Source: Mucidula mucida (taxonomy: Eukaryota; Basidiomycota; Agaricomycetes; Agaricales; Physalacriaceae). From it: 64,000 bases of DNA. The notes beneath the pieces were generated by a model, which did no database searches, was not told the origin of the DNA, and was given only the letters and a program-made list of their open reading frames with translations. The stretch covers positions 682,001 through 746,000 of the forward strand of contig JADNYV010000004.1 in NCBI GenBank assembly GCA_015501055.1, written 5' to 3'. Both the position numbers and the translations under genes were made by a program. Below are positions 31,199 to 32,347 of the stretch, piece by piece (positions within the stretch are counted from its first letter, which is position 1; the number at the start of each line of letters is the position of its first letter).

Positions 31199-31303
31199 TG
31201 TATGCCGCCAAATCGACCGCCAGCACTTGAAGTAAAATAGCAGGCCGGCAGATGATGGTGGTTAGGTCGTAACCCAGAAACGGCAATCTACGCCGCCGGT
31301 CTC

Positions 31304-31329
31304 GGAATAAGCTGTTTGGGAACCCCGGT
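31304..31329 (+). repeat. Left terminal inverted repeat of the 1,035-bp element
   Basis: 26 bp starting GGAATAAGCTG; pairs with 32313-32338 with a single A/G difference at position 4. Confidence 0.85.
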
Positions 31330-31613
31330 AGCCCTACCGGCCCGATGGTCCGATTCTAGCATTGTCGATGAATTACAGGCTCTACACCACCAATTTGGTT
31401 TGAGATCAACCGAAGACTCGGCGAATGAGGTCGTAGATACCTAATATAGTCATGTCAAATTCTGATCGTTTTGAGATTTCCTTGATGTTCCCCTTCTACC
31501 ATCACCGCTGTGTCTTGTGAACGTTCTTTTGACCTTCAAAGCATGTCTCGCAACATCCAGGAAAAAATACCAGATCCACGCCAAATACCTTGACTCTTCT
31601 CACCACCGATCTC

Positions 31614-32104
31614 ATGACCGACACTGCCCCACCAACGCCTACACCCTCTGAGTCGGGCACGGAAGACGAACCAGCAGCCCATACTGAGTTCAGATGCGAC
31701 ATCGCTGACATGCGACAGGATATCAAAGATCTGGAGACACAGTATCGTCGGGTTGCTCGAAGCGTTAACCAGGTGCGTGGTTTTTTTTCTCTGACATCAA
31801 GTTCTCTCTCACTGGCCTGTATAGCTCGCCTGCGACGTGGCTCCTCTAGCTGCAAGCTCGAAGGATATTTCCTTGCAAACTACAGAGTACTCATTCCCGG
31901 TTTGTCCTCGCCCACCCGCAATCCTAACTGATGTAACGGCGTGTAATCACTATAATCCAGTCCTCGCATTGCCCAGTAACCCTCCCCATTGCACATGCAG
32001 TCACTTACAGCCATCAAAACACTCTTCATGCCAAATTTGGCTTGCTTGGAACTGTCCTCTGTGAGATACAGCAATCAGATAGTAGGAGCAGTCGCCATAG
32101 GTAG
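31614..32104 (+). CDS. Putative coiled-coil protein carried inside the TIR element
   Basis: Three exons (31614-31772, 31825-31899, 31961-32104) keep phase and give 125 residues. The N terminus is Thr/Pro/Glu-rich (APPTPTPSESGTEDEPA). A helical segment follows (CDIADMRQDIKDLETQYRRVARSVNQ region) with heptad-like spacing, then LACDVAPLAASSKDISLQ and a less certain last exon. No transposase motif or known family is recognised. Intron sizes and GT-AG signals match those of host genes, which suggests captured host sequence rather than transposon-born code. It could be a real small gene into which inverted repeats were not inserted but which was picked up whole. Expression is unknown. Confidence 0.55.
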
Positions 32105-32312
32105 ATGATGGGCGATAGACCCATCACATGTGGTAGCAGTAAAGAGGAGATGAGTGTGGCGTGGTTTTTGGGTCTACTTCTTACGTGTTCCAGGGTCTAA
32201 CTCAGTTTTTTGTGCAACATGCATAGTTGCTTATGACTAAAAGATCAGTATTGCCTCAAGAAGGCTTATCGACGCCACACAACGTGAGGGTTCGTGTCAC
32301 GCAATGTGACGA

Positions 32313-32338
32313 ACCGGGGTTCCCAAACAGCTTACTCC
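32313..32338 (-). repeat. Right terminal inverted repeat of the 1,035-bp element
   Basis: Reverse complement begins GGAGTAAGCTG; matches the left repeat in 25 of 26 positions. The flanking 9-mer GCCGGTCTC at 32339-32347 repeats 31295-31303. Confidence 0.85.
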
Positions 32339-32347
32339 GCCGGTCTC

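What the first reader, a model, noticed from the sequence alone, without database searches (positions are those of the whole stretch)
31295..32347. 1-kb TIR element with a 9-bp duplication carries an open spliced gene
Two 26-bp inverted repeats (one mismatch) and the flanking 9-mer GCCGGTCTC define a transposon of 1,035 bp. It has no transposase; it contains a three-exon frame with host-like introns. This fits a Pack-MULE-like gene-capturing element, uncommonly described in basidiomycetes. It lies 106 bp upstream of the phosphatase start codon.
Basis: partly seen in the sequence, partly recalled or inferred. Interest (0 to 1): 0.75.

Follow-up and report, generated by a model that had tools for sequence, protein, structure and literature searches.

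The report
Fungal jumping-gene relic with borrowed fragment
Next to a phosphatase gene in a mushroom genome sits a real but non-autonomous jumping DNA element from a small family; its middle contains a stretch that matches the start of a predicted gene in a related mushroom, but the gene it was said to carry is probably only a fragment.

Summary
The transposon is real: 1,035 bp (31304-32338), 26-27 bp inverted ends (one mismatch), exact 9-bp duplication. The ends recur. Nine sites have both outer ends, and all nine are flanked by 9-10 bp duplications with at most one mismatch. Of 10 sites tested, three sister insertions gave unoccupied sites in the same assembly. This is a non-autonomous, Mutator-type (MULE-like) family; the other 13 measured copies are 344-557 bp. 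No autonomous partner was found.

The gene claim is only partly supported. Frames of 125 aa arise in 340 of 500 shuffles, though a stricter splice rule is less permissive (11 of 60). Codon usage is host-like in exons 1-2. A padded protein search found one relative, a 331-aa predicted protein of Hymenopellis radicata. Its first 49 residues match the element's DNA at 48 positions, but across a 16-bp indel that shifts the frame. It lies on a different contig from the H. radicata phosphatase.

No other copy was found in this assembly. A near-identical second contig lacks exons 1-2. Best reading: a Pack-MULE-like element with a gene-start fragment, not an intact gene. Whether the H. radicata gene is the parent, or a model begun inside a sister element, is undecided.

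The parts
31295..31303 (.). left target-site duplication GCCGGTCTC
   Evidence: exact 9/9 match to the right copy
31304..31329 (+). left terminal inverted repeat
   Evidence: the 17-bp core is exact at 6 places in the assembly, this one included
31387..31917 (+). interior stretch absent from the second contig C533 (about 20 bp stand there instead); no other match found in the assembly
   Evidence: alignment; only match is itself
31614..31772 (+). exon 1 of the proposed frame; host-like codon score; matches residues 1-29 and, after a 16-bp frame break, 30-49 of H. radicata P0121
31701..31716 (+). 16 bp with no counterpart in the H. radicata gene model; two copies of ATGCGACA lie 16 bp apart here
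31825..31899 (+). exon 2 of the proposed frame (no match in P0121)
31961..32104 (+). exon 3 of the proposed frame; no coding signal; present on both contigs with two amino-acid-changing differences
32272..32338 (-). right end: the outer 26 bp pair with the left end; about 62-75 bp are shared (80-90%) with sister elements
32339..32347 (.). right target-site duplication GCCGGTCTC

Best explanation
31304-32338 is a non-autonomous cut-and-paste DNA transposon of a MULE-like family. Shown: shared ends, 9-10 bp duplications, unoccupied sites for three sister copies. Inferred: a Mutator-type transposase encoded elsewhere recognised the ends and inserted the element with a 9-bp staggered cut. Its interior differs from its sisters. 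It carries about 160 bp that correspond to the first exon of a predicted gene in the relative H. radicata, so it most likely picked up a gene 5' fragment, as Pack-MULEs do (inferred). The fragment is not a working gene as drawn. On the second contig, 531 bp including exons 1-2 are missing and about 20 bp stand in their place, as expected from interrupted repair of a break inside the element (inferred). The element sits 106 bp upstream of a phosphatase on both contigs and could at most act as promoter-proximal DNA.
For: Ends and duplication. Family: 14 copies with both end regions at 10 sites; 9 sites have both outer ends and all 9 have 9-10 bp duplications, 5 exact and 4 with one mismatch (at C814/C205 the right end was set 10 bp further out by eye). 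Unoccupied sites at 3 of 10 sites tested: C271 for the C974 insertion (both flanks); C757 for C147 (18 bp of the left flank only); C303 and C826 for C506/C70, which is nested in another repeat (45 and 27 bp of the left flank). Different interiors behind the same ends. Codon score: 1 of 281 shuffle ORFs reaches it; exon 1 scores 0.134 bits/codon, and 7 of 157 wrong-frame stretches reach that. H. radicata P0121: E 8e-9, 48 of 49 residues over two frames. P0121 is listed on a 106,323-bp contig and the phosphatase hit P0001 on a 742,878-bp one.
Against: No copy of the interior was found elsewhere in the assembly, so no parent gene here. None of the 15 MULE transposase hits shows these ends (one match at 6 substitutions of 20 in L067, taken as chance), though only about 1.5 kb to each side was read. 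The H. radicata gene model may begin inside a sister element, in which case nothing was captured. In the proposed frame alone only residues 1-29 of P0121 agree (BLASTP: 17 of 18); the next 20 lie in another frame. P0121 has no Pfam family, and window exon 2 does not match it. The codon test compares a hand-picked frame with the longest frames of shuffles; the element's own longest frames score 0.036 and -0.108.
Confidence: 0.6

Rival explanations
1. Plain MULE-type MITE or deletion derivative with unrelated interior. The H. radicata protein is a gene model that starts inside a sister element and is spliced by the predictor onto a downstream gene, so there was no gene capture.
For: Frame broken by a 16-bp indel between the two species. 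The match ends about where exon 1 ends, with no match for exon 2. Frames of this length are common in shuffles. No parental gene found in this assembly.
Against: Host-like codon usage in exon 1. The sequence is nearly identical between species, which needs either recent movement or constraint (rough model).
Confidence: 0.3
2. A functional captured gene: the three-exon frame is expressed and makes a 125-aa protein.
For: Open frame with GT-AG introns. Codon score 0.077 bits/codon, close to the window's long ORFs (mean 0.080, on which the model was trained). Under a stricter splice rule the element's best frame (another one, 158 aa) is reached by only 3 of 60 shuffles.
Against: Length common in shuffles. 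Exon 3 score 0.009. Exons 1-2 absent on C533. Both differences in exon 3 change the amino acid. Frame not kept in H. radicata. The 125-aa query found no relative among 15 candidates (limited to proteins of similar length).
Confidence: 0.08
3. The inverted repeats and the 9-mers are coincidental and there is no transposon.
For: None found.
Against: Same ends at many places with their own duplications and, for three, unoccupied sites.
Confidence: 0.01

Closest known systems
Pack-MULEs (plants; gene fragments inside Mutator-like elements; definition recalled, rice case seen in a passage of PMC8647823)
   Same: MULE-like ends, 9-bp duplication, no transposase, interior unlike its sisters and partly matching a gene start
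   Different: no parental gene found in the same assembly; one locus only with this interior (complete on one contig); evidence for the source gene comes from another species' gene model
MULE-type MITEs (definition recalled)
   Same: sister copies of 344-557 bp with inverted arms of 37-53 bp in the seven stretches examined and 9-10 bp duplications
   Different: the window copy is 1,035 bp with unrelated interior
Histone H3 transduplication by a hAT element in Pseudocercospora fijiensis (PMC6710886, passages read)
   Same: a DNA transposon in a fungus carrying host coding sequence
   Different: hAT with 8-bp duplication, hundreds of copies, parent gene known

Membership tests
Mutator/MULE superfamily (features recalled) | 9-11 bp target-site duplication | tested here: met
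   9 of 9 sites with both outer ends: 9 bp at eight, 10 bp at one; the tenth site, C138, has a damaged right end and no clear duplication
Mutator/MULE superfamily (features recalled) | terminal inverted repeats shared by the family | tested here: met
Mutator/MULE superfamily (features recalled) | mobilised by a MULE transposase whose element has the same ends | tested here: inconclusive
   15 PF10551 hits in the assembly, 13 over the cut-off; no matching ends in the 15 fetched stretches, which reach about 1.5 kb each side only
Merlin (recalled as 8-9 bp duplication) | IS1016/DDE_Tnp_IS1595 transposase in the genome | tested here: not met
   PF12762: 0 matches at E 0.001
Pack-MULE | non-autonomous MULE with a gene fragment inside | tested here: inconclusive
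   one H. radicata gene model matches 48 of 49 residues over two frames
Pack-MULE | parental gene elsewhere in the same genome | tested here: not met
   no second copy by DNA or protein; the parent could be lost, diverged or unassembled
MITE | short (below about 800 bp), non-coding, multi-copy and homogeneous | tested here: not met
   size met by the 13 other copies measured, not by the window copy, whose interior is unique in the assembly search

The most novel reading that the evidence does not exclude
A basidiomycete Pack-MULE-like element has moved a gene start (promoter-proximal sequence plus first exon) around Hymenopellis-like mushrooms. In H. radicata that exon is now joined to a downstream gene (P0121), making a chimeric gene, while in this species it sits upstream of a phosphatase and is being lost on one haplotype.
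Probability: 0.15. Interest if true: 0.6.

Novelty: new member of a known kind. Interest (0 to 1): 0.38.

Why it matters
It documents a MULE-type family with exchanged interiors and unoccupied sites in a mushroom genome, with one member carrying a sequence that looks like a gene start. It also shows how a plausible three-exon frame inside a transposon can be of a length that shuffled sequence often gives, and it names a cross-species locus on which gene capture could be tested. The listings I saw describe no Pack-MULE in a basidiomycete (15 of 51 papers listed; 6 of 6; 3 of 3; 1 of 1; none found). Only titles and abstract starts of an open-access library were seen there, so this is weak evidence of absence.

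Tried and rejected
Autonomous partner: 22-bp end with up to 3 mismatches and an 18-bp degenerate end with up to 1. The only inverted pair further apart than the MITEs in those lists, C358:29777-33176, is an inverted duplication at a contig end that runs past the supposed repeat on both sides, not an element. C377 has one end and no partner with fewer than 6 substitutions of 18 in 3 kb. Merlin transposase: none. Six-frame peptides of the window, C814 and C177 copies against the 15 MULE loci: best E 0.034, taken as chance. Rfam: none. P0121 in Pfam: none; in NCBIfam (E 0.09, far under its cut-off) and solved structures (E 0.26 and 0.3) only chance-level matches. P0121 against the plasmid collection: none (not an informative collection for a fungus). 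Templated filler in C533: only two 9-bp local matches, not conclusive. The 125-aa search admits only proteins of about 69-219 aa, so its negative result was narrow; one search was made to look at longer ones.

No RNA data were available. Shuffle tests preserve dinucleotides only. The codon model is trained on 21 long ORFs of the window that were not curated. Genome DNA searches skip very common words, and one search scored 40 of 51 candidates, so a missing match there is not proof of absence.

Full report
What is there. The window lies at G000:C382:682001-746000 in a 59.9-Mb assembly of 1,047 contigs. A 1,035-bp element at 31304-32338 has a 26-27 bp inverted repeat with one mismatch and an exact flanking 9-mer, GCCGGTCTC. 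It begins 106 bp upstream of the start codon of a minus-strand calcineurin-like phosphatase. The closest phosphatase in the protein collection is from Hymenopellis radicata, 83% over a rough joined model. The source is therefore probably a relative in the mushroom family Physalacriaceae (lineage; the placement is inference).

It is a family. The 17-bp core of the end with up to 2 mismatches gives 42 places against 6 for the reversed control. The 22-bp family end with up to 3 mismatches gives 32 against 0. I measured 14 copies with both end regions at 10 sites; copies on two contigs with the same flanks count as one site. One site (C138) has a damaged right end and no clear duplication. The other nine sites all carry duplications: exact 9 bp at four (window/C533, C92, C90, C177), exact 10 bp at one (C506/C70), and 8 of 9 at four (C974, C926/C154, C147, C814/C205). 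For C814/C205 I set the right end 10 bp further out than the script first did, by eye. C611 has a right end and interior only, yet is flanked by an exact CTGAACATG on both sides. C141 and several other places have one end only. The 13 other measured copies are 344-557 bp. Inverted arms are 37-53 bp in the seven stretches examined.

It moves. A query of joined flanks from 10 sites (40 of 51 candidates scored) found unoccupied sites for three. C271 matches both flanks of the C974 insertion with one copy of the target (alignment of 220 bases with 5 bases of gaps). C757 matches the right flank of C147 and only 18 bp of the left. C303 and C826 carry the uninterrupted repeat into which the C506/C70 copy is inserted, with 45 and 27 bp of the left flank. 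These may be the other haplotype or related repeats. No empty site was seen for the window insertion. Both its contigs are filled.

Superfamily. Duplications of 9-10 bp and long inverted ends point to MULE-like elements (recalled criteria). The assembly has 15 MULE-domain hits, 13 over the cut-off. None of the 15 fetched stretches shows these ends: one match at 6 substitutions of 20, in L067, is taken as chance. The stretches are short. Merlin, another superfamily recalled with 8-9 bp duplications, has no transposase here. The autonomous partner is not identified.

Interiors. Eleven of the compared copies (C92, C90, C506, C70, C177, C611, C147, C926, C154, C974, C138) share interior sequence in varying measure. 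The window/C533 pair shares only about 62-75 bp at an end with the rest. The C814/C205 pair shares up to 84 bp at an end, besides one weak 127-bp match of C814 to C611 at 72%. The window interior 31380-31925 has no match in the assembly but itself (common words are skipped), and the proposed protein has none outside this locus and C533.

The second contig. C533 matches the window over 5 kb on the left at 99.9% and 4.9 kb on the right at 98.7%, including the element and its duplication. It lacks 31387-31917, which holds exons 1 and 2, and has about 20 bp in its place. I read this as a deletion on C533 because no source for a 531-bp insertion was found in the assembly; this is inference. I take C533 as allelic because other insertions also appear on pairs of contigs with the same flanks; a recent duplication is not excluded.

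Is there a gene? The frame exists. Frames of at least 125 aa arise in 340 of 500 plus-strand shuffles and 54 of 60 with both strands, so its length says little. One control leans the other way: with a stricter splice rule 11 of 60 shuffles reach 125 aa, and the element's best frame under that rule (158 aa, another frame) is reached by 3 of 60. The proposed frame's second donor fails that rule. Codon usage does say something: the score of 0.077 bits/codon is reached by 1 of 281 shuffle ORFs (of 300 shuffles, those with best frames under 100 codons were dropped) and is close to the window's long ORFs (0.080, the training set). But this compares a hand-picked frame with the longest frames of shuffles, and the element's own longest frames score 0.036 and -0.108. 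The signal sits in exon 1 (0.134) and exon 2 (0.084), not exon 3 (0.009). As a stricter control, 7 of 157 wrong-frame stop-free stretches of host ORFs reach the exon 1 value, and 29 of 98 true-frame pieces do.

A relative. The ordinary search found nothing (15 candidates). A padded search that admits longer proteins found one match among 30 candidates: P0121, H. radicata hypothetical protein BDZ89DRAFT_1138528, 331 aa, E 8e-9. BLASTP with the proposed protein aligns 18 residues, 17 identical. Translating the window instead shows that residues 1-29 match the exon 1 frame at 28 of 29, and residues 30-49 match another frame at 20 of 20, starting 16 bp further on, where two copies of ATGCGACA lie 16 bp apart. 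So the DNA is probably nearly the same in both species but the frame is not. If the species differed by 8% at such sites, at most one change in 49 would have a probability of about 0.001, at 3% about 0.16 (a rough model); the true divergence is not known. The rest of P0121 is not in the window or in 75 fetched loci. P0121 and the phosphatase hit P0001 are each listed with one contig, of 106,323 and 742,878 bp, so in H. radicata the sequence apparently does not lie beside the phosphatase.

Reading. A non-autonomous MULE-like element carrying a gene-start fragment accounts for the ends, the duplications, the odd interior, the codon signal and the H. radicata match. The main doubt is whether the H. 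radicata gene model itself starts inside a sister element. Either way the 'open spliced gene' is unlikely to be a working gene: its frame is not kept between species, its last exon shows no coding signal, and one contig lacks most of it.

Literature. Pack-MULEs are known from plants (recalled; rice mentioned in PMC8647823). For fungi I saw passages on MULE-linked gene expansion in Rhizophagus irregularis (PMC8647823) and on histone capture by a hAT element (PMC6710886). Other papers were seen only as search listings. Searches returned nothing.

Noticed in passing
L020:4872 onward (C506:17071) and C303, C826 and others: A second repeat family beginning GGAATAGTCCGTTTGCGATATACAGC, with an inverted copy of part of its end a few hundred bases away in many of the listed places; it has the same first six bases as the family studied, and the C506/C70 element is nested in it.
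   Followed up: partly
L013:1912-1981 (C926): A perfect 35-bp tandem duplication inside the element on one contig; it probably accounts for most of the length difference to its C154 partner (389 vs 344 bp).
   Followed up: no
L054, L059, L060, L062, L065 right parts: MULE transposase loci of one group break off in pairwise alignment right after similar ends (GGGTGCGATTGCCCATAAT in three, GGGTGCGACTGCCTACAAC in two), probably the end of an autonomous MULE family unrelated to the one studied.
   Followed up: partly
L014:4544-5040 (C611): A copy without the outer left end is still flanked by an exact 9-mer CTGAACATG on both sides, as if it had been inserted with an internal sequence serving as its left end.
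   Followed up: no
L074 and L075 (C358:29740-33203): Inverted duplication at a contig end flanking unidentified reading frames; four translated pieces had no Pfam match.
   Followed up: partly
window 31701-31716: A 16-bp unit bounded by ATGCGACA repeats is present here and absent from the H. radicata gene model, shifting the frame.
   Followed up: yes
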